Of a stretch of 20,545 bases of DNA, positions 4,744 through 18,165 are shown one piece after another (the stretch's first letter is position 1; every line of letters starts with the position of its first letter). A program made the position numbers and the translations under genes. The stretch lies in the IMG/VR virus record IMGVR_UViG_3300009374_000538, positions 1-20,545 of that record; one strand, 5' to 3'. The notes beneath the pieces are model-generated. The model was not told the origin of the DNA and made no database searches. It worked only from the letters and a program-made list of their open reading frames with translations. Origin of the DNA: a virus.

Positions 4744-4761
4744 AGGAGGATTTGAGTCATG
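4744..4761 (+). promoter_or_regulatory. Strong ribosome site of the major capsid gene
   Basis: The box aggaggatttga at 4744-4755 with three bases before the ATG at 4759 is identical in sequence and spacing to that of the decoration gene. The rest of the 86-base gap (4673-4743) shows no convincing promoter or hairpin. Confidence 0.7.
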
Positions 4762-5817
4762 GATTTGGAAAATATCAATTCAGAAATTTTACAGGGTGGT
4801 GGGTCTGTGGCCCAGCGTCTTTTGGCAAATGGAATGAACGTGGGTGCCCTTCGTCCGTGGGTTGCTGAGGATGGTTTTAACTACATCACAGTCAACGAAA
4901 AGGGCGTGGAAAAGGCCGTGCGTTTTAGTGGCAACGCAACTCTGCGGAAAGATGAGTGGAAAGCGTTGGATACAGCGGTCTTGAAGGCCGCGCAAACACG
5001 TCTGGTCGGCGTGGCGGATCTCGAAGCACGCGGCCTGACCTTTAACCTCGCCAACGGTCTGGGCACGACGGTCTTCCAGTATGAGGACATGTCGGACGTT
5101 CAAGGGGCGCAAGTCTCTATGGACGGTGTGACCCGTGGAGAGAATGACCGGGTGGAGTTCGACATCAATTCGCTCCCGATGCCGATCACGCATGGCGATT
5201 TCCAGCTGAACATTCGCGCACTTACGGCCAGTCGTACTCTTGGTGCTCCTCTGGACACCACGATTGCGGAGTTGAAAGCCCGGAAGATTGCGGAGAAGAT
5301 CGAAGAATACTTGTTTGTGGGTTCCAGCACTTATACGTTTGGTGGTGGAACGATTTATGGGTATCTTGATCAACCGGCCATCAACTCGGTTACGCTTTCC
5401 CAGAACTGGGATGCCAGCGGCAAAACCGGGGCGGAAATTATGGTGGATGTTCTCGCCATGAAACAGGCCTGTATCAATGCCCGGCATTACGGTCCGTATA
5501 TGATGTATATTCCTACGGCTTATGAGGCGACGTTGGACGACGACTTCAAGGCCAACAGTGACGTGACCATCCGGGAACGCATTCTGAAGATTGCCAATAT
5601 CATCGACATCAAGGTGGCGGACTCGCTCACGGCCAATAACGTTCTGATGGTCCAGATGACATCTGACGTTGTTCGCATGATCAACGGGCTGGCCATGACC
5701 ACCGTCGAATGGACTTCAGAGGGCGGCATGATCTTTCATTTTAAGATTATGCAAATCTCAGTTCCGCAGATTCGGGCCGATCAGAATGATCGATCCGGTG
5801 TTTGTCTTTTAAGCTAA
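4759..5817 (+). CDS. Major capsid protein, HK97 fold (encapsulin-like family)
   Basis: A 352-residue protein of normal length for a major capsid protein. The strongest signal is at about residues 139-190, where LPMPITHGDF is followed by NIRALTASRTLGAPLDTT and a helix ending EKIEEYLFVG. This is the spine-helix/P-domain pattern of encapsulin-like HK97-fold capsid proteins. The C-terminal part (QISVPQIRAD) reads like the closing beta strands of that fold. There is no long N-terminal delta domain, consistent with a separate scaffold made from the upstream gene. Best ribosome site in the window, suiting the most abundant virion protein. The capsid role is confident; the exact subfamily is not. Confidence 0.88.
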   Translation: MDLENINSEILQGGGSVAQRLLANGMNVGALRPWVAEDGFNYITVNEKGVEKAVRFSGNATLRKDEWKALDTAVLKAAQTRLVGVADLEARGLTFNLANGLGTTVFQYEDMSDVQGAQVSMDGVTRGENDRVEFDINSLPMPITHGDFQLNIRALTASRTLGAPLDTTIAELKARKIAEKIEEYLFVGSSTYTFGGGTIYGYLDQPAINSVTLSQNWDASGKTGAEIMVDVLAMKQACINARHYGPYMMYIPTAYEATLDDDFKANSDVTIRERILKIANIIDIKVADSLTANNVLMVQMTSDVVRMINGLAMTTVEWTSEGGMIFHFKIMQISVPQIRADQNDRSGVCLLS

Positions 5818-5856: not shown

Positions 5857-6186
5857 ATGTCACAATTCAAGTATAGGTTGAAAGAAGGGTTTGGGGCGCA
5901 TTATGGTAGGGCTGAAGGTAAAAAGGGCGGATTGAAGAGGATGAAACCGGGCACGGAAATAACGGTTGATGATCCGTCCGATTTGGGTGGGGTGGCTTTT
6001 AAGTTTGAGCTGATTGAGACGGTCCCTGATGAAGAGGAGCAGACCGAAGTCAGCTGGCTCGAAATGAAACACGTGGGCGGCGGAAGATATAATGTCGTCA
6101 ACACCGAGACGGGCCGCAACCTCAACGATGATTACCTGTCCAAGAAGGAAGCCACAGCCCTGATTGCCGAGCAAATGGAAGAATGA
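5857..6186 (+). CDS. Small virion-cluster protein of unknown function
   Basis: A 109-residue hydrophilic protein. It has a basic N-terminal half (KYRLKEGFG, GKKGGLKRM), a PGTEITVDDPSDL segment, and an acidic C-terminus. The ATG at 5857 has GGAAGGAG upstream. It sits where head-tail joining genes are usually found, after the capsid gene, but I see no motif tying it to a known connector. It is the last gene before the sugar-modifying cassette, separated from it by about four bases. Confidence 0.68.
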   Translation: MSQFKYRLKEGFGAHYGRAEGKKGGLKRMKPGTEITVDDPSDLGGVAFKFELIETVPDEEEQTEVSWLEMKHVGGGRYNVVNTETGRNLNDDYLSKKEATALIAEQMEE

Positions 6187-6190
6187 TCCA

Positions 6191-6835
6191 GTGGCTCGGT
6201 GGGTAGTCCCTAAACTTTGGCCTGGAGCGACAGTTGCGATTCTGGGCGGCGGTCCGAGTCTGATTGGTCAAGATTTATGCTATGATCTTGAGGCACTTTT
6301 GTCTCCCTTTCGGATCATTGGCGTCAATAATTCCTATCGATTCGGACCATGGGTTGATGTTTGCTGGTTCGGAGATTCCAATTGGTACAAACAACATCAT
6401 TACGAGTTGCGCACGTTTCCGGGGTTGAAGATCTGTTGTCAGCCTCAACTCGAAGACGATCCGGGGGCAAGGGCCGAAGGCATCAAGGTAATAGCCAGAG
6501 GTCAACCGGAGGGATTAGAAAGGCGCAAGGGATACGTGTGTTGGAACCGGAGCAGCGGGGCGTCAGCAATCAATCTCGCTGTAATTTTCGGGGCCAAACG
6601 CATTATATTATTGGGTTTCGATATGCGGGTGATCAACGGAACAAAGAACTGGCACAAGGATCACCGCAGTCAGGACCACGATCCATTCGAACGGTTCCTT
6701 CAGCCATTTCCAGCGATCAAGAGAGATGCCGAAAAGATGAAGGTGGAAATCTTGAACGCAACGCCTGATAGCGGGTTGAAAGATCTGTTTCCATATGTAA
6801 CATTATCGGAGATTGCGAAGTGGGCAAAACCGTAA
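6191..6835 (+). CDS. MptE/DUF115-like Rossmann protein, copy 1 (putative sugar transferase)
   Basis: A 214-residue protein with the glycine-rich loop GGGPSL at 19-24, then VNNSYRFGPWVDVCWFGD, CWNRSSGASAINLA and GAKRIILLGFDM. This is the layout of the MptE-like/DUF115 family, whose fold is shared by Maf proteins that put nonulosonic acids on flagellin and resembles GT42 sialyltransferases. The end carries ILNATPDSG. Substrate unknown; a role in glycan transfer fits the neighbours. The GTG at 6191 is preceded by GGAAG at nine bases and leaves six residues before the PKLW motif. A TTG at 6164, overlapping the previous gene, is the alternative. It overlaps its paralogue downstream by 16 bases. 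Confidence 0.78.
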   Translation: MARWVVPKLWPGATVAILGGGPSLIGQDLCYDLEALLSPFRIIGVNNSYRFGPWVDVCWFGDSNWYKQHHYELRTFPGLKICCQPQLEDDPGARAEGIKVIARGQPEGLERRKGYVCWNRSSGASAINLAVIFGAKRIILLGFDMRVINGTKNWHKDHRSQDHDPFERFLQPFPAIKRDAEKMKVEILNATPDSGLKDLFPYVTLSEIAKWAKP

Positions 6836-7491
6836 ACAGCGAAGGGGCCAGCTACATAGCGCCGAAAATGTGGAAGGGTGAAACCGCGATTGTAATTGGC
6901 GGCGGTCCTTCGCTGATTGGGATGGATTTGTGTCTTCCGTATCCGGGGCTTGAAAGATATTTTGATCGCAATCGTGTTATCGGGGTTAACAGCGCCTGTT
7001 ATTTCGGTCCGTCAATTGACGTCTGTTTTTTCGGAGACGCGAAATGGTACTGGCACAATCGGGATTATCTCCAGAAGGAATTTAGCGGATTGATGGTCAC
7101 GGTTAACGCCAGAGTTCCGGGCCGGGAACCGGGAGTGGAGAACGAGCCAAATGTGAATGTGATTCGCAGGGGTGGTTCGAGAGGGGTGCTGTTCGACGGA
7201 GATGCGATTTGCTGGAACAAATCCTCTGGAGGAGCAGCGATCAACCTGGCGGTGTTATTTGGGGCCAAGCGGATCGTCTTGCTTGGATACGACATGAAAC
7301 GGGGCGGTGGAATGAAAAACTTTATTCCGCATCATTGGGAGAGCACAAATTCAAACCCGTATGAAGGAATGATGATGACGATGGAGCATCTCAAAACCTT
7401 TACGGACAAACGGGGCATAGAGATCCTGAACGCAACGCCCGGATCGGCGCTGAATGTATTCCCAAAGGTGAATCTTCATGAATGTTGTTGA
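6820..7491 (+). CDS. MptE/DUF115-like Rossmann protein, copy 2 (putative sugar transferase)
   Basis: A 223-residue paralogue of the preceding gene, with the same landmarks in order: PKMW (15-18), GGGPSL (27-32), VNSACYFGPSIDVCFFGD, CWNKSSGGAAINLA, GAKRIVLLGYDM, and ILNATPGSA at the end. The two copies clearly share an ancestor but differ at many positions, so the duplication is not recent. The region after GYDM differs most (a NFIPHHW segment here, NWHKDHR in copy 1), which may reflect different acceptors. Start GTG 6820 lies inside copy 1. The gene overlaps the GT-D fusion gene by 14 bases. Function inferred as for copy 1. Confidence 0.8.
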   Translation: MGKTVNSEGASYIAPKMWKGETAIVIGGGPSLIGMDLCLPYPGLERYFDRNRVIGVNSACYFGPSIDVCFFGDAKWYWHNRDYLQKEFSGLMVTVNARVPGREPGVENEPNVNVIRRGGSRGVLFDGDAICWNKSSGGAAINLAVLFGAKRIVLLGYDMKRGGGMKNFIPHHWESTNSNPYEGMMMTMEHLKTFTDKRGIEILNATPGSALNVFPKVNLHECC

Positions 7492-8680
7492 AGAATTTGA
7501 AACTGTTAAGACTATAAAGGAAACCGGGGCCAGCATCGCCCGGTATGGTGACGGGGAACTGCGGTGTGCCGTTGGTAATTCCGCTTGTTTCCAAAAGTCA
7601 GATCCGGTTATGGCAAAAATGCTCAAGAAGATCCTCCGGGAAGACGTGCCGGGGTTGTTGGTTGGAATTCCAAGGATTGCCGGGCCAAAAGCTCATTTGT
7701 GGGAAAAGATAATGGCCAAGCCTTCATTCGCTGAGATGTTAAATCCCAAGCATCAGTATTATTCAGCGTTCATTACCCGGCCTGATTCTGCTCCACAGAT
7801 CGATACGGGCGAATATTGGACTATGTGTAAATCCCTTTGGGAAGACCGGAACGTTGTGATGGTTGAAGGGACAGCGAAAAGATTCAGCAAGGGCAAGAAC
7901 GTATTTGACAATGCGAAGTCTGTTACAATTATTAGTGGGCCAAGCAAAGACGCCTTTGTGGAACTGGATCGGCTGACGAAAAAGGTTCTGGTTCATGACC
8001 CTGACGATTGCGTTGTGATCCTTTCGTTAGGCCCAACGGCTACCATCCTTGCGTATCAGCTTCATAAACACGGATATCAGGCGCTGGATATGGGTCACTG
8101 GTCGTCATTCTATAATCGGGCGCATCCCAAATCAAAGATCAAGGGTGTGGGGATGGTGATCACCGATTATCACCGGGATCAAAACCGTCAGCTTCATCGA
8201 AAGGACTATGGCGGCAGCGGATACAAATGGTCAAAGTTTGTTTATGATTTGATCGTGGGTTATAAGCTGAAGGGGTGGCTGGACTACGGTTGCGGTCAGT
8301 CCACGTTGTACAAGGAGTTCAAAAAGTTCCACAAGAAATGTAAAGTGGGCTACATTGAATATGATCCCGCCATACCTAAAAAGTCATGGCTCCCAATTTC
8401 ACGAGAGTTGGTGAGTTGTACGGATGTTCTGGAACATATCGAACCTGAGCTTTTGGATAATGTTTTAACGCACATATTTCAGCTGGCGAAAAAAGTGGTG
8501 TTTCTTGTTATTGCTTTGAACCCGGCCAACAAGGAATATCCAGACGGGCGGAACACACATCTGATTTTAGAATCTCCTGCTTGGTGGGTTGAGAAGTTGG
8601 CAAGACCGGGTTGGCGTATGCGGAGATTCAAAGCAGAGCGGACAGAAAAGGATCTGGTGATTGTTATGGTGAAAGAATGA
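7478..8680 (+). CDS. Two-domain enzyme: GT-D type glycosyltransferase fused to a class I methyltransferase
   Basis: A 400-residue protein. Residues 1-215 carry the GT-D (DUF1792-like) pattern: SIARYGDGEL (19-28, with the DGE motif), a VGIPR segment (62-66), LGPTATILAY (184-193) and QALDMGH (201-207). GT-D enzymes transfer sugars from nucleotide-sugars, known from serine-rich-repeat adhesin glycosylation. Residues about 255-400 are a SAM-dependent methyltransferase: DYGCGQ (269-274, motif I), YIEYDP (292-297) and CTDVLEHIEP (314-323). The join suggests one polypeptide that adds a sugar and methylates the glycan. No frameshift or stop lies between the halves. ATG 7478 has an AAAGGTG ribosome site. 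The stop overlaps the next ATG (ATGA). Confidence 0.85.
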   Translation: MNVVEEFETVKTIKETGASIARYGDGELRCAVGNSACFQKSDPVMAKMLKKILREDVPGLLVGIPRIAGPKAHLWEKIMAKPSFAEMLNPKHQYYSAFITRPDSAPQIDTGEYWTMCKSLWEDRNVVMVEGTAKRFSKGKNVFDNAKSVTIISGPSKDAFVELDRLTKKVLVHDPDDCVVILSLGPTATILAYQLHKHGYQALDMGHWSSFYNRAHPKSKIKGVGMVITDYHRDQNRQLHRKDYGGSGYKWSKFVYDLIVGYKLKGWLDYGCGQSTLYKEFKKFHKKCKVGYIEYDPAIPKKSWLPISRELVSCTDVLEHIEPELLDNVLTHIFQLAKKVVFLVIALNPANKEYPDGRNTHLILESPAWWVEKLARPGWRMRRFKAERTEKDLVIVMVKE

Positions 8681-9336
8681 AGCAGATGAAACAAATGGAG
8701 GGATGGTGGTGGCCTGATATGGCGAATGAGCGGCATGTACGGTTTTCTCTCACCCGTATTAAGTCTCTTCAGGCCGTTCTGAAGTATTGGAAACGCACAA
8801 GGTCAGTTATACAGGCTGGGGGCAGTTACGGGGTTTGGCCGAAGATGTTGGCAAAGAAGTATGACAACGTTTATACGTTCGAACCTGATGCGGTATCTTT
8901 CCGCTGTCTTTGCCGGAATTGCCCGGAGAAAAACATCCACGCTTTCCGGGCTGCGCTCGGTTATCGAAAGGAGTGTTTGACGATTCGGCCCAAAAGTTTC
9001 ACTGCCCACCGGGTGATTGGAGTGGGGGCCACGGTTGGAATAAGGGTTGATGATATCGGCTGGCCCAGATGTGATGCGATCCTGTTGGATGTGGAGGGGT
9101 TTGAGCCGTATGTTCTTCAGGCGGCCAAATCCACCATCCATACGTTCCGCCCGTTGGTGTTGGTTGAGATTCGTCCTGAGATGTTCAAGTTTTACGGATT
9201 GAAAGATGGCGCTTGTGAATCGTTCATGGAGAATATGGGATATATCGAAGTGGCCAATATTCAATGCGATAAGATTTTTGTTCATCATCTCGAAATGAAA
9301 CATTGGAAAAGACCGTTGGACGGGAAAGGGAAGTGA
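8677..9336 (+). CDS. FkbM family SAM-dependent methyltransferase
   Basis: A 219-residue protein with AGGSYGVWP (47-55, SAM-binding motif I), YTFEPD (66-71) and LLDVEGFEP (136-144), the marker of FkbM methyltransferases. These typically O-methylate sugars or polyketides and are frequent in capsule, O-antigen and flagellin glycan loci. The ATG at 8677 overlaps the previous TGA by four bases; an in-frame upstream start at 8611 is rejected because it would overlap the GT-D fusion far more. The start of the next gene overlaps the stop by one base (TGATG). Likely methylates a sugar made or transferred by its neighbours. Confidence 0.86.
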   Translation: MKQMKQMEGWWWPDMANERHVRFSLTRIKSLQAVLKYWKRTRSVIQAGGSYGVWPKMLAKKYDNVYTFEPDAVSFRCLCRNCPEKNIHAFRAALGYRKECLTIRPKSFTAHRVIGVGATVGIRVDDIGWPRCDAILLDVEGFEPYVLQAAKSTIHTFRPLVLVEIRPEMFKFYGLKDGACESFMENMGYIEVANIQCDKIFVHHLEMKHWKRPLDGKGK

Positions 9337-10097
9337 TGAAAGATTTGACGCTCATTGTTCCGTATTACGACAGCCCGGATATGTTTCAGGTTCAGCAAGA
9401 GAACTGGATGAGTTATCCAGAGAAGATCCGGGACCGAATGGAGTTCATCGTTGTGGATGATTGTTCTCAGGAGTTATACGCCAGAGACAACGTGATATTT
9501 CCTCCGGGTTTCCCGTTTCGATTGTTCTTTATTACAGAACATATGTTATGGAATTGGGAAGCAGCCCGGAACATTGGCGCCAAACACGCAGAGGGCAAGT
9601 GGTTGTTTCTAACGGATATGGATCACCTGTTACCGCCTAAAAGTTGCGGGAAGATCTTTGACCGAATTGATAACGGGCTTTCAGTTAACAAGCCCATGGA
9701 GGAACGGTTTTTTTATACGGTGGACCGGGTCAATGCGCCAGACTTAACTATGTACAAGAACCACCCAAACACGTATCTTCTTACACGTGAACTGTATTGG
9801 TACATAGGCGGATATGATGAGGAGTTTAACATCATCACCGGGGGCATATACGGCATGGACGGTCCTTTTCGCAGGTGGGCGGAGAAGATGACAGACGGGA
9901 ATATCCATCTGGATGGAATTCCAATTGTTCGGTATCCGAGGGAAATTGTGGCTGATGCCTCTTGTACTTTGCCACGGAAGACCGGGCGCAATGAAGCGGA
10001 TCTGAAAGCGGTTCGGGCGCTGGCCCGTCGAAAGATGGTGAAGGAAATTATGCCAACGGTTTTGAAATCGTCATATACAGAGGAGAAATGGGAATGA
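9336..10097 (+). CDS. GT-A fold glycosyltransferase (GT2-like)
   Basis: A 253-residue protein with the GT2-type opening LTLIVPYYDSP (4-14), IVVDDCS (38-44), the donor-side AARNIGAKHAEGKWL (76-90), and FLTDMDH (91-97), whose DMD is the metal and nucleotide-sugar binding DxD motif. GGYDEEF (158-164) matches the acceptor-side motif of galactosyl/GalNAc-type GT2 enzymes. No membrane segments, so it is soluble, unlike many lipid-linked GTs. ATG 9336 lies in the stop of the FkbM gene behind GGGAAAGGGAAG. Sugar and acceptor unknown. Confidence 0.85.
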   Translation: MKDLTLIVPYYDSPDMFQVQQENWMSYPEKIRDRMEFIVVDDCSQELYARDNVIFPPGFPFRLFFITEHMLWNWEAARNIGAKHAEGKWLFLTDMDHLLPPKSCGKIFDRIDNGLSVNKPMEERFFYTVDRVNAPDLTMYKNHPNTYLLTRELYWYIGGYDEEFNIITGGIYGMDGPFRRWAEKMTDGNIHLDGIPIVRYPREIVADASCTLPRKTGRNEADLKAVRALARRKMVKEIMPTVLKSSYTEEKWE

Positions 10098-10665
10098 GTT
10101 TAGCTACAATCACAGCTGATATCGATCAGCGCCCGGTGTTAGAGCATTTGGTCAATTCTCACGGATGGAAGAAGGGCGCTGAAGTTGGACTCCTTCGGGG
10201 CAAGACGTTTTTCCATATGCTGAAGACATTCCCGAATCTTCGACTGGTTGGAATAGATCCGTGGTTGACTGGTCTTCCGGGTTTCGGAGACAAAAATGGG
10301 AGAAGGGCTTTAACGCTTACAACGTTAACTTCATGGACGAATACGCTGAAAGGGTCACAACGGAAGCAAAAAAGCCCGGATACGATGGCAGAGCAGAAAT
10401 TCATCGCATGACGTCTCTGGAAGCTGGAGAGATGTTTCCAAATGAGACGTTTGATTATGTTTTCATTGACGGAGATCACCGGGAGTCTTTTGTCAGGGCG
10501 GATATTGCGGTCTGGGCACCGAAAGTGAAGCCAGATGGTTGGTTGATTGGACACGATTCGATAATCCCATCTGTTCAAAGGGCGGTTTGCGCGTTGCTGC
10601 CGGGCTGGCGGCCATATACAGGATCTGTTTGGGCGATACCGAAAAGAGAGATCAAATGGGCTTGA
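10094..10665 (+). pseudogene. Class I SAM methyltransferase interrupted by a single-base frameshift
   Basis: The N-terminal frame gives MSLATITADI..., AEVGLLRGK (29-37, motif I) and VGIDPW (52-57), then degenerates and stops at 10411 (105 residues). The same protein continues in the -1 frame with KWEKGFNAYN, then FDYVFIDGDH and KPDGWLIGHD, ending at 10665. The two halves join at the A-run of CAAAAAT at 10291-10297; adding one A restores a 190-residue Methyltransf_24-like enzyme. The cause may be a sequencing or assembly error in the homopolymer, a real mutation, or less likely recoding. Start ATG 10094 overlaps the previous stop (ATGA) with AGGAG eight bases upstream; ATG 10088 is too close to that site. 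If real, loss also breaks translational coupling to the next gene. Confidence 0.78.
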
Positions 10666-11288
10666 AGACTGAATATTTAAAATTCATGTTCGATAAGGTT
10701 TTGGGTTTTGATATTCCGCCACGGAAACATTATGCTATGTTGGAATTGGGAAATCAACGGATGAAGTACGGAGATGAGACGCTTTGGCCGTTTATTAATA
10801 CCATCAAGCTGTTTTCAAAGCAGCCGTTTACAGGCAAGGAATTTTTTACAAAGTTAGGTTATCATCATATCAGTATTGATTTGAATGGATTCGACGGGTC
10901 GCAGAGAATGAATTTGGCAACGCCGATTGTGGCTGAAAATCTTCTCTTTCAATTTGAAGTTCTGACAAACTTCGGGACCACCGAGCACGTGACGGATCAA
11001 TATCAATGTTTTCGAAATATAGACAACCTCGTGAAAGATAACGGGTATATGGTTCACCTTGTGCCGGCCAGAGGGAGAGGGACTGCGCATGGGCGGTGGC
11101 ATTATACTTTAGCGTTTTTTGCGATGCTGTCTGATCTGGCCGGTTATGAAATTGTTGCAGGTCCGGGTGTCCATTATTTTGGAAAGCCCGGTAATTTATA
11201 TATCACTTGTGGATACAAAAAGAAACGGGGCCATAATTTTATGAACCGCAAAGATTTTCCAATTGGGTTAATTGATAAAAATGAATAG
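10656..11288 (+). CDS. Methyltransferase-like protein
   Basis: A 210-residue protein with features of a class I SAM methyltransferase: MLELGNQ (28-34) at the motif I position, HISIDLNG (71-78) resembling motif II, and FEVLTNFGTTEHV (100-112), then DNGYMVHLVP (128-137) like the post-motif strand. Motif I lacks the usual GxGxG, so SAM binding is less certain than for the FkbM gene. Such divergent forms occur in polysaccharide and phage loci. ATG 10656 overlaps the end of the frameshifted methyltransferase gene; an earlier in-frame TTG would run far into it. Likely acts on a sugar or lipid-linked glycan; substrate unknown. Confidence 0.72.
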   Translation: MGLKTEYLKFMFDKVLGFDIPPRKHYAMLELGNQRMKYGDETLWPFINTIKLFSKQPFTGKEFFTKLGYHHISIDLNGFDGSQRMNLATPIVAENLLFQFEVLTNFGTTEHVTDQYQCFRNIDNLVKDNGYMVHLVPARGRGTAHGRWHYTLAFFAMLSDLAGYEIVAGPGVHYFGKPGNLYITCGYKKKRGHNFMNRKDFPIGLIDKNE

Positions 11289-11955
11289 GCCGATTGTCAT
11301 ATTGGGTTGTCCTCGTTCCGGGACTTCGTTGACTACTGGATGCTTTCATGTTTGTGGGGCTTGGGTGGGTCGATGTAGACCGGGAGACAAACGAAATCCA
11401 AAGGGCTATTTTGAAAACTTTCTGATTAACAATATCGTTTATATGGCCAATGAAAATATTCTGCCTGAAGAGATCCGGGCGCTAATTGTTGCTGCGATGG
11501 GCGCTCAAAAATATCGGGGTGGACCATGGGCGGTTAAGTTCGGGATTCATGTTGAAGCGGTTGAGCGGCTGGCACCTTTAAAGCCGGTCTGGGTTCTGGT
11601 TAGGCGGAATGTGAACGATATTGTCCAATCGCAAATACGCTCATTTGAATTGCGTCAGGAAATGAATCAGGTCGAACAGGACAAAAAGTTTGATGTTACC
11701 AAATCGCTTTCTAAGGCAATCCGGGCGAATCAGTTTCTGACGCAGGTCCGGGACAAATATCAGGATTCAGCTTTTGACATTTGGCCTTCGGATTTGATGA
11801 ACGGTAATTTTAAGGGTTTCAAAAAAGCGATCTCGTATTATGGTCAGGGGATGAATTTGGATCGTTCAAAGTTGAACGAGTTTATTGAACGCGCTCATTG
11901 GCATTTCGATACAAAGGAACGAGATGATTTCAGTGGTCACGTGGAAATGGAATAA
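11281..11955 (+). CDS. Sulfotransferase-like protein, copy 1
   Basis: A 224-residue P-loop protein. VILGCPRSGTSLTTG (6-20) is the 5'-phosphosulfate binding loop of PAPS-dependent sulfotransferases. VLVRRNVNDIVQS (105-117) fits the 3'-phosphate binding motif (Arg, then Asp-Ile-Val). KGYFENFLIN (41-50) is shared with the second copy at 13553. The family moves sulfate from PAPS to hydroxyls of sugars or other acceptors. No PAPS-making genes are present, so the host would supply the donor. ATG 11281 lies in the end of the methyltransferase-like gene; its ribosome site is weak, suggesting coupling. A kinase reading of the P-loop is less likely because of the CPRSGTS signature. Confidence 0.8.
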   Translation: MNRPIVILGCPRSGTSLTTGCFHVCGAWVGRCRPGDKRNPKGYFENFLINNIVYMANENILPEEIRALIVAAMGAQKYRGGPWAVKFGIHVEAVERLAPLKPVWVLVRRNVNDIVQSQIRSFELRQEMNQVEQDKKFDVTKSLSKAIRANQFLTQVRDKYQDSAFDIWPSDLMNGNFKGFKKAISYYGQGMNLDRSKLNEFIERAHWHFDTKERDDFSGHVEME

Positions 11956-12904
11956 CGGGTTACACCCAAAGAAAGGGCTGGTGTTCGGATCGAAGCATGT
12001 GAACGTCCTATACAGTATGATCTGGCGCCACCTTCATGTTCCATTTCGTTTCTTTTGTATCACGGATGATTCTCTTGGGCTTCACCCGGCCATCGTTCCT
12101 TTTAAGTTGTGGGATGATTATTCAGATACACCGGGATGTTTTCGGCGGCTGAAGATCTTTTCCACCGAGATGAAAAAATATTTTGGAGATCGGATATTGT
12201 CTGTGGATTTGGATTGCGTCATAACAGGAGACATCACCTCACTGGTCGAACGGGATGAAGACTTTGTTATCTGGGGAGAAGAATGGCGCAAGACAAAATA
12301 CTGCGGGTCATTATTCCTTTTGCGGACTGGAAGCAGAGCGCAGGTTTGGGAGGGCTTTAATCTGGAACAGTATCCGCCCAGACGCGATAAAATGTATCCG
12401 AAAGGAACAGACCAGTGGCGGATTTCTGATTGTTTGTATCCGGGAGAAGCAACCTACACCTCAAGGGACGGGATATACAACCTTGAGTTTGACGTTCGAG
12501 TGAATATGAACAAGCGTCATATGCCGAAAGTCCGGGCACAACGGGACCAGACAAGAAGGGAAGTGGGGAAGCTGAACAATCGGATCAAACGAGTTCAAGC
12601 GGAACTGGATGCGGATCTTCCAAGAAAATATTCGTCGAAGTTTCGGCAGAAAAAGTGGGAGACTTTAGAACGGGAACGTCAAGAACGGGATTACAAAGAT
12701 TTGAGTGAGCGACGTGCGAAGTTATTTGGATCACTCCCGGAGAACAAAGGCGTTGTTCACCGGGGCAAAAAGCGAATAAAGGTGAAGGGCGGAGACGGAC
12801 TTTTGCCCGATAATTCCCGGATTGTTTTTTTCAATGGAAAGTATGACCCATCACAGGACTGGTTACAAGAGGAGTTGCCGTGGATAAAAGACCATTGGAG
12901 ATAA
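11924..12904 (+). CDS. GT-A glycosyltransferase with a charged coiled-coil insertion
   Basis: A 326-residue protein. ISVVTWKWN (2-10), a KHVNVLY segment (24-30), RFFCITDD (42-49), GCFRRLK (71-77) and ILSVDLDCVITGD (91-103, with the DxD motif) mark a phage-borne GT-A family related to GT8/GT32-type enzymes. The closing motif SRIVFFNGKYDP (298-309) and PWIKDHWR (319-326) are also typical. Between DGIYNLEFD (182-190) and the closing motif lies about 100 residues dominated by Arg, Lys, Glu and Gln (193-290), which looks like a coiled coil and is absent from the sister gene at 12880. ATG 11924 has AAGGA six bases upstream and sits in the sulfotransferase gene. Sugar unknown. Confidence 0.82.
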   Translation: MISVVTWKWNNGLHPKKGLVFGSKHVNVLYSMIWRHLHVPFRFFCITDDSLGLHPAIVPFKLWDDYSDTPGCFRRLKIFSTEMKKYFGDRILSVDLDCVITGDITSLVERDEDFVIWGEEWRKTKYCGSLFLLRTGSRAQVWEGFNLEQYPPRRDKMYPKGTDQWRISDCLYPGEATYTSRDGIYNLEFDVRVNMNKRHMPKVRAQRDQTRREVGKLNNRIKRVQAELDADLPRKYSSKFRQKKWETLERERQERDYKDLSERRAKLFGSLPENKGVVHRGKKRIKVKGGDGLLPDNSRIVFFNGKYDPSQDWLQEELPWIKDHWR

Positions 12905-13560
12905 CTGTCTGTTGTTTCTTTTGGGGTGATTGGTGTGAACCACACGGGCCAGATTATGTCAACCGGCTTTTCCGGGGCGTGAAAAAGCATTTGACCGTTC
13001 CTCATAGGTTCGTTTGTTTTACTGACCGTTTGATAGGTCACAAATTGGAGTCTGGGATTGAGACAATCAAATTCGATCTTCCACGGTGGGATTGGAACTT
13101 GCGGAAATCGTTTCTATTTAATCCAAATAACGGATTAAAGGGAAGGGTTGTCTGTTTGGATTTGGATGTCGTTATCGTGGCGGATTTTGGCGATTTAGCC
13201 GGTTATGACGGTTGGTTCGCCACCTGTGAGGCAGCGTACCGGAAGAAGAAGTGCGGCGGCAGCATTATCGGGTTTGAAGCCGGTGATAAACAGCTTCAGG
13301 AATTACTCTGGAACCCGTTGTTGCGGGACCGAAAAATCATTGAACAACAGACGATGGGATCTGAACGAAAGTATTTCAATCAAAGGCTTCCAATGTCGCA
13401 GATCGACTTTTGGCAACAGCTGTATCCGGGGAAAGTTCTGAGCTACAAGCTGGATTGTAAAGAGGGGTTGCCGGACGGGGCTTCAATAGTTCGTTTTCAC
13501 GGAAGACCGAGACCACACGAAGTTAATGATGACTGGGTGAAGGAACATTGGTATGGATGA
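12880..13560 (+). CDS. GT-A glycosyltransferase, sister of the preceding gene
   Basis: A 226-residue protein with the same core as the gene before it: YVNRLFRGVKKHL (26-38), HRFVCFTD (42-49), RVVCLDLDVVIVAD (89-102, DxD at 94-96) and the closing SIVRFHGRPRP and WVKEHW. It lacks the charged insertion of its neighbour. The GTG start at 12880 sits behind AAGAGGAG inside the preceding gene (25-base overlap). Soluble, no membrane segments. The two may add successive sugars. The next gene starts eight bases before its stop. Confidence 0.82.
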   Translation: MDKRPLEITVCCFFWGDWCEPHGPDYVNRLFRGVKKHLTVPHRFVCFTDRLIGHKLESGIETIKFDLPRWDWNLRKSFLFNPNNGLKGRVVCLDLDVVIVADFGDLAGYDGWFATCEAAYRKKKCGGSIIGFEAGDKQLQELLWNPLLRDRKIIEQQTMGSERKYFNQRLPMSQIDFWQQLYPGKVLSYKLDCKEGLPDGASIVRFHGRPRPHEVNDDWVKEHWYG

Positions 13561-14269
13561 AGTAAAGAAAACCATGAGCGATATAGACAGGCCCATTCTG
13601 ATTACGGGGTGCGCCAGATCCGGGACCAGTATGACAGCCGGCATTATTGCTTTGTCCGGGGCGTGGGGCGGTCAGGTAGCAGGGCCAACGAATCAAAATC
13701 GGAAAGGGATGTTTGAGAATTCCAAAATCAGGCGGACAATTGTGAAGCCGTTTTTGAAATCTTTGGGTTGCGATCCTATGGGCCAAGATCCTCTCCCGGA
13801 TATAGATGCGGTGAAGCTGGTTACGTGGAAGACTGTATACAACTGGCGTAAGCGGATCAAGGGTGTGATTCTACATCAGGGCTATGAGGGCGGCATTTGG
13901 TATTACAAAGGGGCGAAGATGGCGAACCACTGGCCCATCTGGTCAAGGGCTTTCCCGTATGCCCGGTGGATTGTTGTTAGGCGGAAAAGTGACGAGATTG
14001 TGAAGTCCTGCTTGAAGACAAGTTTCATGCGGGCTTTTAAAACTAGTGAGGGCTGGTTTAGGTGGGTTGACTATCACAAGGACCGATTTCTGGAAATGGA
14101 AGAAGCAGGAATGGATATTCAGTACGTCTGGCCCCAAAAGATGATTGATTTCGATCTCTCGGAGATCAAAGGCGTTGTTCAGCATTTAGGACTTCGGTGG
14201 GATCGGGAAAAAATTGAGAAATTTATCGAACCGGCGTTGTGGTCAGGAGGACAAAGCAATGGCAAATAG
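13553..14269 (+). CDS. Sulfotransferase-like protein, copy 2
   Basis: A 238-residue P-loop protein homologous to the gene at 11281. LITGCARSGTSMTAG (16-30) is the phosphosulfate loop, with Ala replacing the usual Pro. NRKGMFENSKIRR (49-61) corresponds to the KGYFEN block of copy 1, and VVRRKSDEIVKS (141-152) is the second PAPS motif. The middle is richer in aromatic residues than copy 1, suggesting a different acceptor. ATG 13553 has AAGGA eight bases upstream. Its last 11 bases overlap the head-tail connector gene, making it the final member of the cassette and tying it to virion genes. Confidence 0.8.
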   Translation: MDEVKKTMSDIDRPILITGCARSGTSMTAGIIALSGAWGGQVAGPTNQNRKGMFENSKIRRTIVKPFLKSLGCDPMGQDPLPDIDAVKLVTWKTVYNWRKRIKGVILHQGYEGGIWYYKGAKMANHWPIWSRAFPYARWIVVRRKSDEIVKSCLKTSFMRAFKTSEGWFRWVDYHKDRFLEMEEAGMDIQYVWPQKMIDFDLSEIKGVVQHLGLRWDREKIEKFIEPALWSGGQSNGK

Positions 14270-14651
14270 AGTTACAGGAGCAGAAGTTATCGCCATAATG
14301 GATACAACCTTGACCGCTGTGACCATTGATCCTTTTATTACCGTGGCCAATCTGGTTGTGACGGAGAAACTGACTGATGCCGGGCATTCGGCGGCGTTGT
14401 TGAAGGAGATCGAACGGTGGCTGGCGGCGCATTTTGCTACGGTCAAAGATCCGCGTATCATGAATGAGAAAGCTGGCGATATGTCTGCCAAGTATGAAGT
14501 GGCGACGTTAGGAAAGGCGTTGGACGGGACCGTGTACGGTCAGACGGTCAAGGTGCTTGACTCCTCCGGGATACTCGCCAATGTAGGCAAGATGGCGGCA
14601 AAGTGGGAAACGATTGACAGTCCAAGTTATGATCCTGAGACGTCAAGTTAA
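14259..14651 (+). CDS. Head-tail connector (adaptor) protein
   Basis: A 130-residue protein with the helical pattern of phage head-tail adaptors (gp6/gp15-like): two N-terminal helices (VTGAEVIAIMD; DPFITVANLVVTEKL), LLKEIERWLAAHF with a conserved Trp, a DPRIM segment, MSAKYEV, and a C-terminal VKVLDSSGILANVGK. Such proteins form a ring under the portal that connects head to tail. The ATG at 14259 follows CAGGAGG at eight bases and lies within the end of the sulfotransferase gene. An in-frame start at 14214 is rejected as it has no ribosome site. Confidence 0.78.
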   Translation: MANRVTGAEVIAIMDTTLTAVTIDPFITVANLVVTEKLTDAGHSAALLKEIERWLAAHFATVKDPRIMNEKAGDMSAKYEVATLGKALDGTVYGQTVKVLDSSGILANVGKMAAKWETIDSPSYDPETSS

Positions 14652-14665
14652 AAGGAGACTGTGAT

Positions 14666-14962
14666 ATGGCAAAGAATGTAAGAGCAACGATAGCAGCAGC
14701 GGATACATTCACTGAATGGATTAGTCCAAGGGCCGGGAAAGGGATTGGCGGAGAGTTGAATTTGAGTATCTCTGGGACGTTTAGTGCAACCATCACTCTC
14801 CAGTGGCGGTTCGGATCTTCCGGCAGTGCGTTGGACGTGGAAGATTATACAGTGCCCTTTGAAGGATCTTTTGAGGAAATTGAAGAAGAAGTCCAATACA
14901 GGCTGGGCGCAAAGGCCGGGAATTATTCGTCTGGGTCGGCGGAAGTGAGGTTAAGCAAATGA
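14666..14962 (+). CDS. Small virion-associated protein of unknown function
   Basis: A 98-residue protein rich in Ser, Thr, Gly and beta-type residues. It contains GGELNLSISGTFSATITLQW and a closing YRLGAKAGNYSSGSAEVRLS, which reads like a beta-sandwich. Proteins of this pattern recur near head-tail genes in phages and are probably surface or fibre components; I recall the pattern only. ATG 14666 follows AAAGGAGA. The stop overlaps the next start (ATGA). Confidence 0.7.
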   Translation: MAKNVRATIAAADTFTEWISPRAGKGIGGELNLSISGTFSATITLQWRFGSSGSALDVEDYTVPFEGSFEEIEEEVQYRLGAKAGNYSSGSAEVRLSK

Positions 14963-15645
14963 GCGGACAAAGATTGCTTGGATTAGTTCGAGGGCTTTTG
15001 GCTCCTGGTATTGATTCCGCTGTGAACCGTTATATGCGGGATGTAATTGGAAACAAAAGTGATACTGTTGGCGGCGATTCAATTGTATCTCTGATAAAGA
15101 TACTGGACGCTGTGGCGGATCTTATACAGGCGGAAACGGACAAAATTGATTCTGCTGTAACAGACGGGTTGGCCGGGACTGTTAACAGTTTGACGTATAG
15201 GGTTCATGAGATTGAGAAACATTTCCATAACAACGATTGTTATTTTGGAGATGGAGGATCAAACGATCTGGCGGTCAATCTTACGGAGATTCAAATTGCG
15301 GCAGAGACCGGGCTGGCTTTTGGAAGTGAGCTTCAGATTCATGATGGGTCAACGATTATAGCCGGGATGACCAAATTGGATTTGGGGAAGATGCTTGTTA
15401 CAGCGATTAGCGCCACAAGCAAAGTATATCTTTTCCAATTTTGGGCCGGTGCTGGGGCGTTTGGAGACGCAACGCTGGTTTGTGAAGACGTTGGGTTTTT
15501 TCCAGCGTCAACAGGGCGTAGTGTTTCAATTCCGTTGCGATGTGCGCGTTTTAATATGTCTGATAAACTTTGGGTCAGATCTAAGTGTGAAACAAACGGG
15601 GCCACGTTGGATTTTCTGCCCGGCCTTCATGGATATGTAGCATAG
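14959..15645 (+). CDS. Virion-associated protein of unknown function
   Basis: A 228-residue protein. The first 85 residues are mostly helical (SIVSLIKILDAVADLIQAE) and could form a stalk or trimer. From about residue 90 the protein is beta-rich, with an HFHNNDCYFGDGG turn and Gly/Ala/Ser strands. This two-part design fits a small head or tail fibre, but there is no diagnostic motif. ATG 14959 overlaps the preceding stop by four bases, so the two are probably coupled and may work together. Function not recognised. Confidence 0.68.
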   Translation: MSGQRLLGLVRGLLAPGIDSAVNRYMRDVIGNKSDTVGGDSIVSLIKILDAVADLIQAETDKIDSAVTDGLAGTVNSLTYRVHEIEKHFHNNDCYFGDGGSNDLAVNLTEIQIAAETGLAFGSELQIHDGSTIIAGMTKLDLGKMLVTAISATSKVYLFQFWAGAGAFGDATLVCEDVGFFPASTGRSVSIPLRCARFNMSDKLWVRSKCETNGATLDFLPGLHGYVA

Positions 15646-15656
15646 GAAAACACATT

Positions 15657-16007
15657 ATGCCTTCAAACTTTTTAACTCGAAATCTGAAACAAACCGCCGT
15701 GTATTGGGGCAATCCGGTGTCGAACGGATACGGAGGATGGACGTTGGATTCTCCCGTGGAGATAAGTGTGCGGTGGGAGGATCGGAACGAGCTATTCACC
15801 AGCCCGGATGGCAGAGAAGAAGTTTCATCAGCGATCATCTACACGGCTCAGGACGTTGACATCGGTGGTTATCTGTTTCTGGGTGAACTCACGGATCTCT
15901 CCAGCAGCCAGTTGTATTCGGATGAAGACGACTCTTTCAAGATCCGGCAGTTTTCAAAATCTCCAAATCAACGGGTTAGTGGTTTTGCCCGGAAAGCGTT
16001 TTTGTAA
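15657..16007 (+). CDS. Head closure / head-tail joining protein
   Basis: A 116-residue protein. The opening QTAVYWGNPVSNGYGGWTL, the VRWEDRNELF segment and the closing NQRVSGFARKAFL match small head-closure (stopper) proteins, which plug the connector after DNA packaging. Its position between connector and tail completion genes agrees. AGGAAAA precedes the ATG. The stop overlaps the next gene's start (TAATG at 16005-16009). Confidence 0.75.
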   Translation: MPSNFLTRNLKQTAVYWGNPVSNGYGGWTLDSPVEISVRWEDRNELFTSPDGREEVSSAIIYTAQDVDIGGYLFLGELTDLSSSQLYSDEDDSFKIRQFSKSPNQRVSGFARKAFL

Positions 16008-16573
16008 TGGGCGGCAGATTAATCGGAACAGAAAAAGTACTTAAAAATCTCAACCGGGAGATTGGGAAAGTTGAAGGAGACGTGTTGGCTGGCGTTATTA
16101 CAGCGGCGTTATTTATCCGGGGCCGGTCTCAGGTGAAGACGCCTGTGGTTGAAGGTAATTTGCGAAATAGCGCATATGTGGTTTCCTCATCCGGTTCAAC
16201 AAATGCTGGATCCAGTCCTAAATTCACCGGGAGAGATTCCGGGAATATGGCCACACAGCATGTGGGAGAAATGACCAAACAACGAAACATTGCGAAACGA
16301 TCTTTGAAAAAATTCGGGCCAATGGCGTCAATTGGTTACAGCGCGGTGTATGCTTTGGCGGTTCACGAGAATCCAAGGGCCGGGAAGACAGGCGGATTTT
16401 CTCCCACAGGACAGAAGTATACAGCTGGGCGAAATCCGAGCGGCAGAAAAAGCACGCGCAAGGTTTTCTCCACAGTTGGGCAGTGGAAGTATTTGGAGAA
16501 TCCGTTGAACTCGAATAGCAAACGGGTTTTGGCTATCATTAAAAATAAAGCGAAAATCAGGGGCGGCGCATGA
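16007..16573 (+). CDS. HK97 gp10-like tail completion (minor capsid) protein
   Basis: A 188-residue basic protein. The N-terminal helix with a repeated hydrophobic spacing (VLKNLNREIGKVEGDVLAG), then VKTPVVEGNLRNSAYV, and ASIGYSAVYALAVHEN match the HK97 gp10 family, which completes the tail at its head-proximal end. The Gly/Ser/Lys-rich stretch after residue 125 is a probable surface loop. The next gene overlaps by four bases (ATGA at 16570). Confidence 0.78.
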   Translation: MGGRLIGTEKVLKNLNREIGKVEGDVLAGVITAALFIRGRSQVKTPVVEGNLRNSAYVVSSSGSTNAGSSPKFTGRDSGNMATQHVGEMTKQRNIAKRSLKKFGPMASIGYSAVYALAVHENPRAGKTGGFSPTGQKYTAGRNPSGRKSTRKVFSTVGQWKYLENPLNSNSKRVLAIIKNKAKIRGGA

Positions 16574-16956
16574 ATAGTCCTGCGGATGACATAAAAGATA
16601 TTCTTGAAGCGGCGGTGAGCAGTTGGAGTTTTGGAACTAACTTATTTGTTGCGTTGGAGCCACCGTCTCCCAACGAGGTCGTGAGCGTTTTTGATACAGG
16701 TGGCTTTGACCCAGACTCCAATACCGATTTGGAGAATCCAACTGTTATGGTGCGTGTTAGAGGAGATAGGGGTGGTTACACAGAGACTTATTCAAGGGCC
16801 AGAGACGTGAAGGACAATCTTCATGAACTCGCAAACGAGACGTGGAACGGCACAAGATATATAGGCATATGGCAGGTGGGCGATATTTTGTTCATTGGTA
16901 TGGATGAAAATGACCGCCCGGTCTTCACATTAAACTTTAGAATAATGAGAACGTAA
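16570..16956 (+). CDS. Tail terminator protein
   Basis: A 128-residue protein. SPADDIKDILE at the start, the NPTVMVRVRGD strand, an YSRARDVKDNLHEL helix and a C-terminal RPVFTLNFRIMR strand follow the alpha/beta layout of phage tail terminators (lambda gpU and DUF3168-like), which cap the tail and fix its length. Its place directly before the tail tube gene is canonical. ATG at 16570 overlaps the preceding stop. Confidence 0.75.
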   Translation: MNSPADDIKDILEAAVSSWSFGTNLFVALEPPSPNEVVSVFDTGGFDPDSNTDLENPTVMVRVRGDRGGYTETYSRARDVKDNLHELANETWNGTRYIGIWQVGDILFIGMDENDRPVFTLNFRIMRT

Positions 16957-16973
16957 AAAGAGGAGGACAAAAA

Positions 16974-17477
16974 ATGGAATTTATTAATCCAAAATTGATG
17001 TTTATTGTTTTATTACTGATTGCGGCGATTTGGTTTTGGAAAACCCAAATTGCATATACCACTAACGCAATTGCGGGCGTTGGAACCGTTTTCAAACGTG
17101 GAGACGGAACAAGCAGCGAAACATTCAACGCTGTATCGGAAGTTAACTCAATTACAGGACCAACAAAAAGCCGGGGCACAATTGATGTTACGTCTCTGGA
17201 TTCCACCGGAGGATACCGTGAATTTATTGCCAGCTTTCGGGATGCCGGGACGGTAGTGCTTAACATGAACTGGACAAGAGACGGGTTTGACGATTTGAAC
17301 GATGACTTTGAATCGGATTCAACCCGTAATTTCCAGATTGTGATGCCGGATACCGGAGAGACGACTTTTGATTTTGCCGCCTATGTGACGGATATTAATC
17401 AGGGCATTCCGTTTGACGATAAAATCACAATGGATGTGACGCTGAAGATCACCGGTCAGGTTACGCTGACTTCATAA
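16974..17477 (+). CDS. Major tail tube protein with an unexpected hydrophobic N-terminal segment
   Basis: A 167-residue protein. From about residue 31 it is a typical siphovirus tail tube: FKRGDGTSSETF (40-51), SITGPTKSRGTIDVTSLDST, YREFIASFRDAG, and a C-terminal DVTLKITGQVTL. The tube polymerises around the tape measure. The first 30 residues are atypical: LMFIVLLLIAAIWFW (8-22) is hydrophobic enough for a membrane helix, flanked by Lys7 and Lys23. The start is well supported by GAGGAGG upstream of ATG 16974, and no in-frame ATG follows the segment before the tube core, so it should be translated. A late start, processing, an assembly artefact or a real membrane anchor remain possible. Confidence 0.85.
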   Translation: MEFINPKLMFIVLLLIAAIWFWKTQIAYTTNAIAGVGTVFKRGDGTSSETFNAVSEVNSITGPTKSRGTIDVTSLDSTGGYREFIASFRDAGTVVLNMNWTRDGFDDLNDDFESDSTRNFQIVMPDTGETTFDFAAYVTDINQGIPFDDKITMDVTLKITGQVTLTS

Positions 17478-17524
17478 GGGTTGAAGAAGGAAACCAACTA
17501 ACCATAAAAAAAGGAGACAGGCGA

Positions 17525-17893
17525 ATGACTGAAACAAAATGTTTAAGCAAGGGTGATATTCTCAAGTCCAAGGATATTAAAATTGAGCGGGTGGAAGTTC
17601 CTGAGTGGGGTGGTCATACGTTCGTAAAAGTAATGTCCGGGATTGAGCGCGAGAATTATGAAGATTCAATCTTTGAGGTTTCCAAAGAAGGAACTAAAAG
17701 GAAACCTGGAAGTGTACGGGCAAAGCTGGTTGCCAAAACTATGTGCGATGAAAAAGGAAAACTTTTGTTTAATGAGTTAGAGATCCGGGATTTAGAAAAG
17801 AAATCTGGCAAGGCGCTGGATCGGGTTTTTGATTGTGCCAAAATTATAAACGGAATTGGCGCTGATACGGTGAAGGAAAACGCAAAAAACTAA
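17525..17893 (+). CDS. Tail assembly chaperone (lambda gpG-like)
   Basis: A 122-residue acidic/basic soluble protein between tail tube and tape measure genes, the invariant location of tail chaperones. It contains VPEWGGHTFVKVMSG, AKLVAKTMCDEKGKLLF and a C-terminal ALDRVFDCAKIINGI helix, like gpG/XkdN-type proteins that bind and solubilise the tape measure. It ends in a canonical slippery sequence followed at once by TAA, so a share of ribosomes should continue in the -1 frame to make a GT-like fusion with the next frame. Ribosome site AAAGGAGA upstream of ATG 17525. Confidence 0.82.
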   Translation: MTETKCLSKGDILKSKDIKIERVEVPEWGGHTFVKVMSGIERENYEDSIFEVSKEGTKRKPGSVRAKLVAKTMCDEKGKLLFNELEIRDLEKKSGKALDRVFDCAKIINGIGADTVKENAKN

Positions 17894-17943
17894 TTGAAAG
17901 GCCAGACCGGATGATGCTCCATAAACTGGCGCTGGCCTTTCAA
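17884..17943 (+). promoter_or_regulatory. Programmed -1 ribosomal frameshift signal (slippery heptamer plus stem-loop)
   Basis: A_AAA_AAC at 17884-17890 lies in the 0 frame of the chaperone gene (codons gca aaa aac) and the stop TAA follows directly. A perfect 12-base stem, ttgaaaggccag (17894-17905) with ctggcctttcaa (17932-17943), encloses a 26-base loop. Slipping back one base opens a frame that runs through to the stop at 18165. Both elements have the standard spacing of bacterial -1 signals. Confidence 0.85.
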
Positions 17944-18165
17944 CGAACGATTCCTGAGCTTGTAAAATCGATGGACAGCAACGAAATTGGAGAGTGGATT
18001 TCATATTTTCTTGCTGAACGGATGTTGGATGAAAAAGCGCACAAAAAGTCGCAGGAACCAAAGCAACAAACGTCTCAGGACCATATGGGGATTATGATGG
18101 CTTTGGCCGGTGGGAGTAAAGCTGGCAAAAGTAAAGGCAAAAAACGAATAGTGAGGAAACGATAA
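17911..18165 (+). CDS. Tail assembly chaperone extension (lambda gpT-like, made by -1 frameshift)
   Basis: The open frame with ATG at 17911 codes for 84 residues: MMLHKLALAFQRTIPELV at the start, then GEWISYFLAERML, then a basic tail. This is the gpT domain pattern. I infer it is mainly translated as the C-terminal part of a G-T fusion entered at 17890 through the slippery heptamer, which adds LIERPDR before the Met and gives about 213 residues in total. The fusion form recruits the tape measure to tube protein in lambda-type tails. Independent initiation at 17911 is possible (weak AAGG upstream). Confidence 0.8.
   Translation: MMLHKLALAFQRTIPELVKSMDSNEIGEWISYFLAERMLDEKAHKKSQEPKQQTSQDHMGIMMALAGGSKAGKSKGKKRIVRKR

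What the first reader, a model, noticed from the sequence alone, without database searches (positions are those of the whole stretch)
6191..14269. Eleven-gene glycosylation, methylation and sulfation cassette inside the virion operon
Seen: between the capsid block and the head-tail connector lie two MptE/DUF115-like genes, a GT-D/methyltransferase fusion, FkbM, a GT2-like enzyme, two more methyltransferase-type genes (one frameshifted), and a sulfotransferase/GT/GT/sulfotransferase block. Known: these families act on glycans, and tail or capsid glycosylation occurs in some phages. Inference: co-expression with the late genes means the virion (or the host surface at lysis) is given a methylated, sulfated glycan. 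I do not know of a described phage set of this composition.
Basis: partly seen in the sequence, partly recalled or inferred. Interest (0 to 1): 0.82.

Follow-up and report, generated by a model that had tools for sequence, protein, structure and literature searches.

The report
Phage capsid-operon sugar and sulfate cassette
Between its capsid gene and head-tail connector genes this uncultured phage carries an eleven-gene enzyme set that probably decorates its own particle with a methylated, sulfated sugar chain; about a hundred relatives carry changing versions of the set at the same spot, framed by the same first and last genes, and a three-gene core occurs in laboratory phage P1.

Summary
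Eleven overlapping genes (6191-14269) lie between capsid and connector: two DUF115-like, GT-D/methyltransferase fusion, FkbM, GT2, two methyltransferases (one frame-broken), two sulfotransferases, two GT8-like glycosyltransferases. An independent contig is identical from 12858 to 18070.

A census of 101 non-redundant relatives shows a bounded, variable locus. The capsid-connector gap runs from 0.3 to 10 kb. DUF115 is the first cassette gene in 85 of 87 loci that carry it; a sulfotransferase is last in 51 of 55. The variable interior adds sugar dehydratases and epimerases, radical-SAM enzymes and other transferases. Small APS-kinase-like genes (PAPS, the sulfo donor, needs this activity) abut a sulfotransferase in 17 of 19 cases. 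Key enzymes are under strong purifying selection (dN/dS 0.04-0.12). Lipid-carrier transferase, flippase and GtrA are absent from 50 related records, so a cytoplasmic acceptor, the virion, is the best explanation. No glycan was observed.

The kind is known: Corndog-type virion glycosylation. Tetraselmis virus S20 has six of these enzyme families at the same place, and P1 pmgO/P/Q are DUF115-DUF115-GT8. New here: the sulfotransferase family (no match in 50,697 phage records), the framed architecture, and a reading of pmgOPQ testable in P1.

The parts
4759..5817 (+). major capsid protein (DUF6260/phrog_771); left boundary
5857..6186 (+). small gene that follows the capsid gene in most relatives (gpX); function unknown
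   Evidence: no Pfam or PHROG match; recurs in the census
6191..6835 (+). DUF115/MptE-like protein 1 (phrog_4603): first cassette gene, putative initiating glycosyltransferase
   Evidence: model pLDDT 94.1, best PDB match MptE 8sd5 with probability 1.00
6820..7491 (+). DUF115/MptE-like protein 2 (tandem paralogue)
7478..8680 (+). GT-D glycosyltransferase (about residues 20-214) fused to a methyltransferase (about 265-380)
   Evidence: PF08759 1.4e-44; phrog_24759 6e-20; PDB 5v4a 2.6e-29, GalT1 4phr 3.6e-25
8677..9336 (+). FkbM-type O-methyltransferase
   Evidence: PF05050 29.0 bits over a 22.7 cut-off; ATGA overlap with the previous stop
9336..10097 (+). GT2-type glycosyltransferase
   Evidence: PF00535 7.1e-10; 43% identical to S20 TVGG_00044
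10088..10665 (+). Methyltransf_24 gene split over two frames (10088-10411 and 10261-10665)
   Evidence: PF13578 56.3 bits on the second part; alignment with relatives
10657..11288 (+). Methyltransf_23-like methyltransferase (weak match)
   Evidence: PF13489 23.4 bits against a 27 cut-off
11281..11955 (+). sulfotransferase 1 (divergent member of the family)
   Evidence: RSGTS and R-x7-S motifs shared with the family
11924..12904 (+). GT8-like glycosyltransferase with an insert in its C-terminal half (phrog_1962)
   Evidence: phrog_1962 7.9e-16; profile to glycogenin 1.4e-6
12880..13560 (+). GT8-like glycosyltransferase (phrog_1962)
   Evidence: phrog_1962 4.2e-20
13553..14269 (+). sulfotransferase 2, the conserved last cassette gene
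   Evidence: model pLDDT 92.8; best PDB matches tyrosylprotein sulfotransferases, 6.7e-6, probability 1.00; motifs invariant in 45 sequences
14259..14651 (+). DUF4054 connector gene; right boundary
   Evidence: PF13262 24.1 bits over a 23.9 cut-off; present in the census

Best explanation
It is a virion-glycosylation locus. A DUF115-like enzyme, first in the operon and the one gene nearly always present, probably attaches the first sugar to a structural protein in the host cytoplasm (a Maf- or GT42-like step; inferred). GT-D, GT2 and GT8-like glycosyltransferases lengthen the chain, O-methyltransferases cap hydroxyls, and the terminal sulfotransferases add sulfate from PAPS. The acceptor is probably the capsid or another head protein made from the same coupled late operon. 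The interior genes turn over between relatives while the first and last genes stay, so the glycan, and hence the particle's charge and outer chemistry, diversifies while the head machinery is kept. Shown: gene content, order, conservation, selection, and motifs and fold of the sulfotransferase. Inferred: catalytic activities, the order of reactions, the acceptor, and the benefit (shielding from binding, adsorption or stability).
For: Eleven coupled genes in the virion operon. Census of 101 non-redundant loci: DUF115 first in 85 of 87, sulfotransferase last in 51 of 55; in the 51 loci fetched by capsid alone, DUF115 in 38 (first in 36) and sulfotransferase in 14 (last in 14). Interior genes of relatives include Epimerase, GDP-Man_Dehyd, RmlD, GT2, GT11, GT29, methyltransferases and radical SAM. 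APS-kinase-like genes abut a sulfotransferase in 17 of 19 occurrences, and none abuts one in the 46 records of the third batch, mostly without a sulfotransferase. PAPS motifs invariant and PAPS sulfotransferase fold. dN/dS medians: sulfotransferase 0.047, GT8 0.043, DUF115 0.116, capsid 0.111. KdsA and KdsB genes beside the portal, MuF or terminase genes in three relatives read here. No lipid-carrier transferase, flippase or GtrA in 50 records. Independent DUF115 genes at head genes of D3 and PAJU2, and a P1/P7 operon annotated as (head) morphogenesis. Precedent: Corndog, with capsid glycosylation cited from Freeman 2023 (PMC4351075, PMC12363180).
Against: No virion or glycan was observed. The DUF115 model matches MptE (a pterin diphosphokinase) better than any glycosyltransferase: the GT42 sialyltransferase match at 3e-4 (5-sequence profile) was lost with 45 sequences and in the fold search. 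APS-kinase-like genes are short and below the NCBIfam cut-off. No acceptor signal was found: Ser/Thr content and length of capsid, decoration and gpX proteins do not track cassette state clearly. One gene of the set is frame-broken.
Confidence: 0.72

Rival explanations
1. The enzymes alter host surface polysaccharide late in infection (superinfection exclusion, seroconversion, or release of progeny).
For: FkbM, GT2, GT8 and sugar-nucleotide enzymes also occur in cell-surface glycan pathways (established family knowledge); KdsA/KdsB in relatives make CMP-Kdo, an LPS precursor; D3, which carries the DUF115 gene, is known as a seroconverting phage through other genes (own knowledge).
Against: No GtrA, lipid-carrier initiating transferase or flippase in 50 records although the controls ring; no clear membrane segment in the window's enzymes; the locus sits inside the head operon and not in a separately transcribed moron; the minimal state is a lone DUF115 gene.
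Confidence: 0.12
2. The set modifies phage DNA (base hypermodification) or packaged DNA.
For: Phages do glycosylate DNA bases, and glycosyltransferases and methyltransferases occur in such pathways (own knowledge).
Against: No Tet/JBP match in 50 records (but no control genome rang, so this is weak); sulfotransferases and sugar dehydratases have no known role on DNA; the set sits between capsid and connector genes; P1, which carries the DUF115-DUF115-GT8 core, has no reported glycosylated DNA (own knowledge).
Confidence: 0.06
3. The locus is a cargo or moron hot spot of miscellaneous genes with no common pathway; carbohydrate enzymes merely accumulate there.
For: Interior content is highly variable; a sub-lineage carries small membrane or coiled-coil proteins there instead.
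Against: Fixed first and last genes far above shuffles; sulfotransferase paired with APS-kinase-like genes; strong purifying selection; the interior consists mostly of linked carbohydrate functions.
Confidence: 0.1

Closest known systems
Corndog / Che8 / Myrna mycobacteriophage virion glycosylation (PMC4351075; Freeman 2023 as cited in PMC12363180 and PMC11256854)
   Same: Glycosyltransferases and, in Corndog, an O-methyltransferase encoded among virion genes; virion proteins reported to be glycosylated
   Different: Corndog genes lie between portal and protease; no sulfotransferase or DUF115 reported in the passages read; shown by experiment there, only inferred here
Tetraselmis viridis virus S20/SI1 (HQ632857, HQ632858)
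   Same: Between capsid and connector genes: two DUF115, GT-D, the same methyltransferase type, GT2 (43%), FkbM (31%), GT8 (38%)
   Different: Different capsid family (PF05065); GT-D and methyltransferase are separate genes; no sulfotransferase; annotated mostly as hypothetical
Phage P1 pmgO-pmgP-pmgQ (P7 hdmB-hdmC-hdmD)
   Same: DUF115-DUF115-GT8 core in an operon annotated as (head) morphogenesis
   Different: No methyltransferase or sulfotransferase; not beside the capsid gene; nonessential for plaques (PMC10695390)
Pseudomonas phage D3 orf7 and PAJU2 ORF010
   Same: Lone DUF115 gene at head-tail connector genes
   Different: A single gene, without elongation, methylation or sulfation genes beside it
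PAPS-dependent sulfotransferases (tyrosylprotein sulfotransferase, STF1/STF9, CurM)
   Same: PAPS-binding motifs and fold
   Different: About 15% identity; substrate unknown; own family, without a convincing PHROG and without a match in 50,697 phage records
GalT1/dGT1 GT-D enzymes of streptococcal adhesin glycosylation
   Same: Same domain, 3.6e-25 to PDB 4phr; acts on a protein-linked glycan (own knowledge)
   Different: Here fused to a methyltransferase, in a phage

Membership tests
[quoted passage not shown]
Virion-glycosylation cassette (Corndog type) | sugar-modifying enzymes beside them (O-methyltransferase) | tested here: met
   FkbM above cut-off, Methyltransf_24 above cut-off
Virion-glycosylation cassette (Corndog type) | glycan on virion protein | not testable with these tools
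   needs mass spectrometry
Virion-glycosylation cassette (Corndog type) | homology of the transferases to Che8 gp110 / Corndog gp38 | not tested
   tblastn of cassette proteins listed no mycobacteriophage among the rows shown, but no direct comparison was made
PAPS-dependent sulfotransferase | 5'-PSB loop and 3'-PB Arg-x7-Ser motif | tested here: met
   G-x2-RSGTS and R144/S152 invariant in 45 sequences
PAPS-dependent sulfotransferase | sulfotransferase fold | tested here: met
   model pLDDT 92.8, TPST2 3ap3 6.7e-6, probability 1.00
PAPS-dependent sulfotransferase | Pfam Sulfotransfer_3 curated cut-off | tested here: not met
   22.8 and 17.4 bits against 27
DUF115/MptE-like superfamily | GxGPS motif and MptE-like fold | tested here: met
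   GGGPS columns conserved; MptE 8sd5 probability 1.00
DUF115/MptE-like superfamily | Pfam MptE-like curated cut-off | tested here: not met
   21.1 and 24.7 bits against 34.6
GT42 sialyltransferase / Maf glycosyltransferase | sequence and fold kinship to CstII or Maf | tested here: inconclusive
   CstII at 3e-4 with 5 sequences, absent with 45 sequences and from the 50 best fold matches
GT8 glycosyltransferase | DxD-type motif and profile kinship to GT8 | tested here: met
   invariant D96; glycogenin 1.4e-6
Gtr-type seroconversion cassette | GtrA flippase | tested here: not met
   0 of 50 records including the window
Lipid-carrier polysaccharide pathway | initiating lipid-carrier transferase and flippase | tested here: not met
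   0 of 50 records for PF02397 and PF01943 with controls positive

The most novel reading that the evidence does not exclude
A widespread uncultured phage lineage carries, in a fixed slot of its head operon, a serotype-like locus that builds diversifying, sulfated (in some relatives possibly Kdo-derived) glycans on the virion, in some members with its own APS-kinase-like supply of the sulfo donor: phage-encoded sulfation of a virion glycoprotein.
Probability: 0.45. Interest if true: 0.86.

Novelty: new variant of a known kind. Interest (0 to 1): 0.72.

Why it matters
Glycosylated phage particles have been shown in only a few phages, mostly of mycobacteria. This locus suggests that decoration of the head is common, modular and fast-changing in a large uncultured lineage, and extends it to sulfation, which would make particles strongly acidic. 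The DUF115-GT8 core reaches into phage P1, where pmgO, pmgP and pmgQ have had only a putative morphogenetic label although dispensable for plaques; the proposed function can be tested there with laboratory strains.

Tried and rejected
Close-relative searches with a single query found few loci; alignments were needed. DUF115 as a proven GT42 sialyltransferase was rejected as unproven: conflicting. NeuB (nonulosonate synthesis) was not found in 50 records. Looking for the acceptor through Ser/Thr content or length of capsid, decoration and gpX proteins gave nothing clear. The promoter and terminator scan showed nothing beyond chance. The Tet/JBP negative cannot be used firmly because no control rang. 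PHROG and Pfam gave no name for gpX. Programmed frameshifting for the Methyltransf_24 gene was considered: no classic slippery heptamer was seen in the sequence, so a sequencing indel or a decayed gene is as likely. Literature searches found no phage sulfotransferase paper, within an open-licence library only. Freeman 2023 itself is not held and is cited through two other papers.

Full report
What is there. The window is the whole of a 20545-bp uncultured-virus record. Its + strand is a virion operon: MuF-like protein, DUF2213 protease, decoration protein, major capsid protein (4759-5817), a small gene (5857-6186), then eleven enzyme genes (6191-14269), then a DUF4054 connector, head-tail and tail genes up to a tape-measure gene running off the end. 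The eleven are two DUF115/phrog_4603 genes, a GT-D/methyltransferase fusion, FkbM, GT2, Methyltransf_24 (two frames), Methyltransf_23-like, sulfotransferase, two GT8-like (phrog_1962) and a second sulfotransferase. Neighbouring genes mostly overlap by 4-34 nt; no terminator excess; no clear membrane segment. Some family calls rest on profiles and not on curated single-sequence cut-offs: DUF115 (21.1 and 24.7 against 34.6 bits) and sulfotransferase (17.4 and 22.8 against 27).

Sulfotransferase. In 45 relatives the G-x2-RSGTS loop and the R144-x7-S152 pair are invariant, the PAPS-binding signature of the superfamily (established knowledge). The model (pLDDT 92.8) finds tyrosylprotein sulfotransferases and mycobacterial STF1/STF9 first (6.7e-6, probability 1.00). 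Two members had no tblastn match in 50,697 phage records, and no PHROG matches the family convincingly.

Census. Capsid, sulfotransferase and DUF115 searches in viral contigs plus phage hits gave 139 loci with capsid and connector, 101 after removing capsids at 95% identity or more. The gap between the two genes runs from 285 to 10017 bp. DUF115 is present in 87 and is the first cassette gene in 85; a sulfotransferase is present in 55 and is last in 51. In 73 loci with three or more cassette genes the positions far exceed shuffles of gene order. Because two of the three searches used cassette proteins, the fair frequencies are those of the 51 capsid-fetched loci: 10 without cassette genes, 38 with DUF115 (36 first), 14 with sulfotransferase (14 last). 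On a capsid tree of 99 rows the states cluster but change at least 14 times.

Interior. 118 representatives of unassigned interior genes matched Epimerase (12), GT2 (11), methyltransferases (11), radical SAM (10), GDP-mannose dehydratase (9), RmlD (8) and others including GT11 and sulfotransferases; one 1008-aa protein matched GT29. The counts overlap, since related SDR families hit the same proteins. All four exceptions to 'sulfotransferase last' have a small gene after it which is APS-kinase-like. Over all loci, 17 of 19 such genes abut a sulfotransferase of the family (a few of the 17 are near-identical contigs); an eighteenth (L191) precedes a gene that reads like a divergent sulfotransferase. 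Batches of records: 7 of 50 and 9 of 50 over the Pfam cut-off, mostly cassette-bearing, against 1 of 46 in the batch of mostly sulfotransferase-free relatives, where it lies upstream of the capsid gene. They score below the NCBIfam apsK cut-off, so the activity is inferred. KdsB genes occur in 5 of 50 records; in the three I read they lie beside terminase, portal or MuF genes, one with KdsA, so CMP-Kdo is a candidate donor in those relatives. I saw none of these genes in the window.

Selection. In relatives, pairwise dN/dS medians are 0.047 (sulfotransferase), 0.043 (GT8), 0.116 (DUF115) and 0.111 (capsid): the enzymes are kept working. The window itself has no relative close enough for this test.

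Known phages. The DUF115 family lies at head genes in D3 (orf7, between capsid and connector) and PAJU2, and beside tail genes in a Caulobacter phage. In P1, pmgO (1.6e-29) and pmgP (1.3e-9) are both DUF115 relatives and pmgQ is GT8-like (6.6e-45); the P7 record calls the same genes head morphogenesis. All three are nonessential for P1 plaques by knockdown and deletion (PMC10695390), as expected of a decoration. Tetraselmis viridis virus S20, with an unrelated capsid, has two DUF115, GT-D, methyltransferase, GT2, FkbM and GT8 genes between capsid and head-tail genes, with 31-43% identity to the window's for most. Corndog is the experimental precedent (Freeman 2023 as cited).

Mechanism. I commit to virion glycosylation (0.72): DUF115 starts, GT-D/GT2/GT8 extend, methyltransferases cap, sulfotransferases finish. 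The rivals need membrane or DNA parts that were looked for and not found (the Tet/JBP negative is weak). The weakest link is DUF115, whose model resembles the pterin kinase MptE and whose link to GT42 rests on one weak profile match. The acceptor is not identified.

Hosts. The capsid search in genomes found a prophage-like locus in a Zixibacteria chromosome (L215: capsid, gpX, DUF115, GT8, two more genes, connector) and several metagenome-assembled contigs; the host of the window is unknown.

Verdict. Observation confirmed, interpretation partly supported, a new variant of a known kind. Interest 0.72.

Noticed in passing
window 571-2436: MuF-like head protein with a C-terminal metallopeptidase-like part (HELGHH motif; weak PF07737 match, 0.0019), a MuF-fusion effector-like layout.
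   Followed up: no
window 14666-15645: Two genes (98 and 228 aa) between the DUF4054 connector and the next head-tail gene, without relatives in other loci except the identical contig L005; relatives join the connector directly to the next gene. Possibly surface or fibre proteins.
   Followed up: partly
L162 3111-3842, L138 1999-2733, L042 1542-3058: KdsB (and in L042 KdsA) genes placed among terminase, portal or MuF genes of cassette-bearing relatives.
   Followed up: partly
L171 5331-8354: 1008-aa cassette protein with a GT29 sialyltransferase domain, a family best known from eukaryotes (own knowledge).
   Followed up: no
L002 2938-4206 and 4203-6560: Radical-SAM-like protein beside a methyltransferase-GT9-GT8 triple fusion in the cassette of a relative.
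   Followed up: no
L080 3277-3858, L084 12174-12713, L112 4849-5277, L106 7019-7525: In a sub-lineage with DUF115 only, the next gene is a small protein with a strongly hydrophobic segment (19-residue mean 2.6-2.9), perhaps a lysis or membrane protein.
   Followed up: partly
L231 3843-5627 (Citrobacter phage phiNP): DUF115 and GT8 genes between lysis and terminase genes of a phage with lambda-type lysis genes, a further relocated copy of the core.
   Followed up: no
window 10088-10665: Methyltransf_24 gene broken between two frames near 10260-10300; decayed gene, sequencing indel or frameshifting cannot be told apart.
   Followed up: partly
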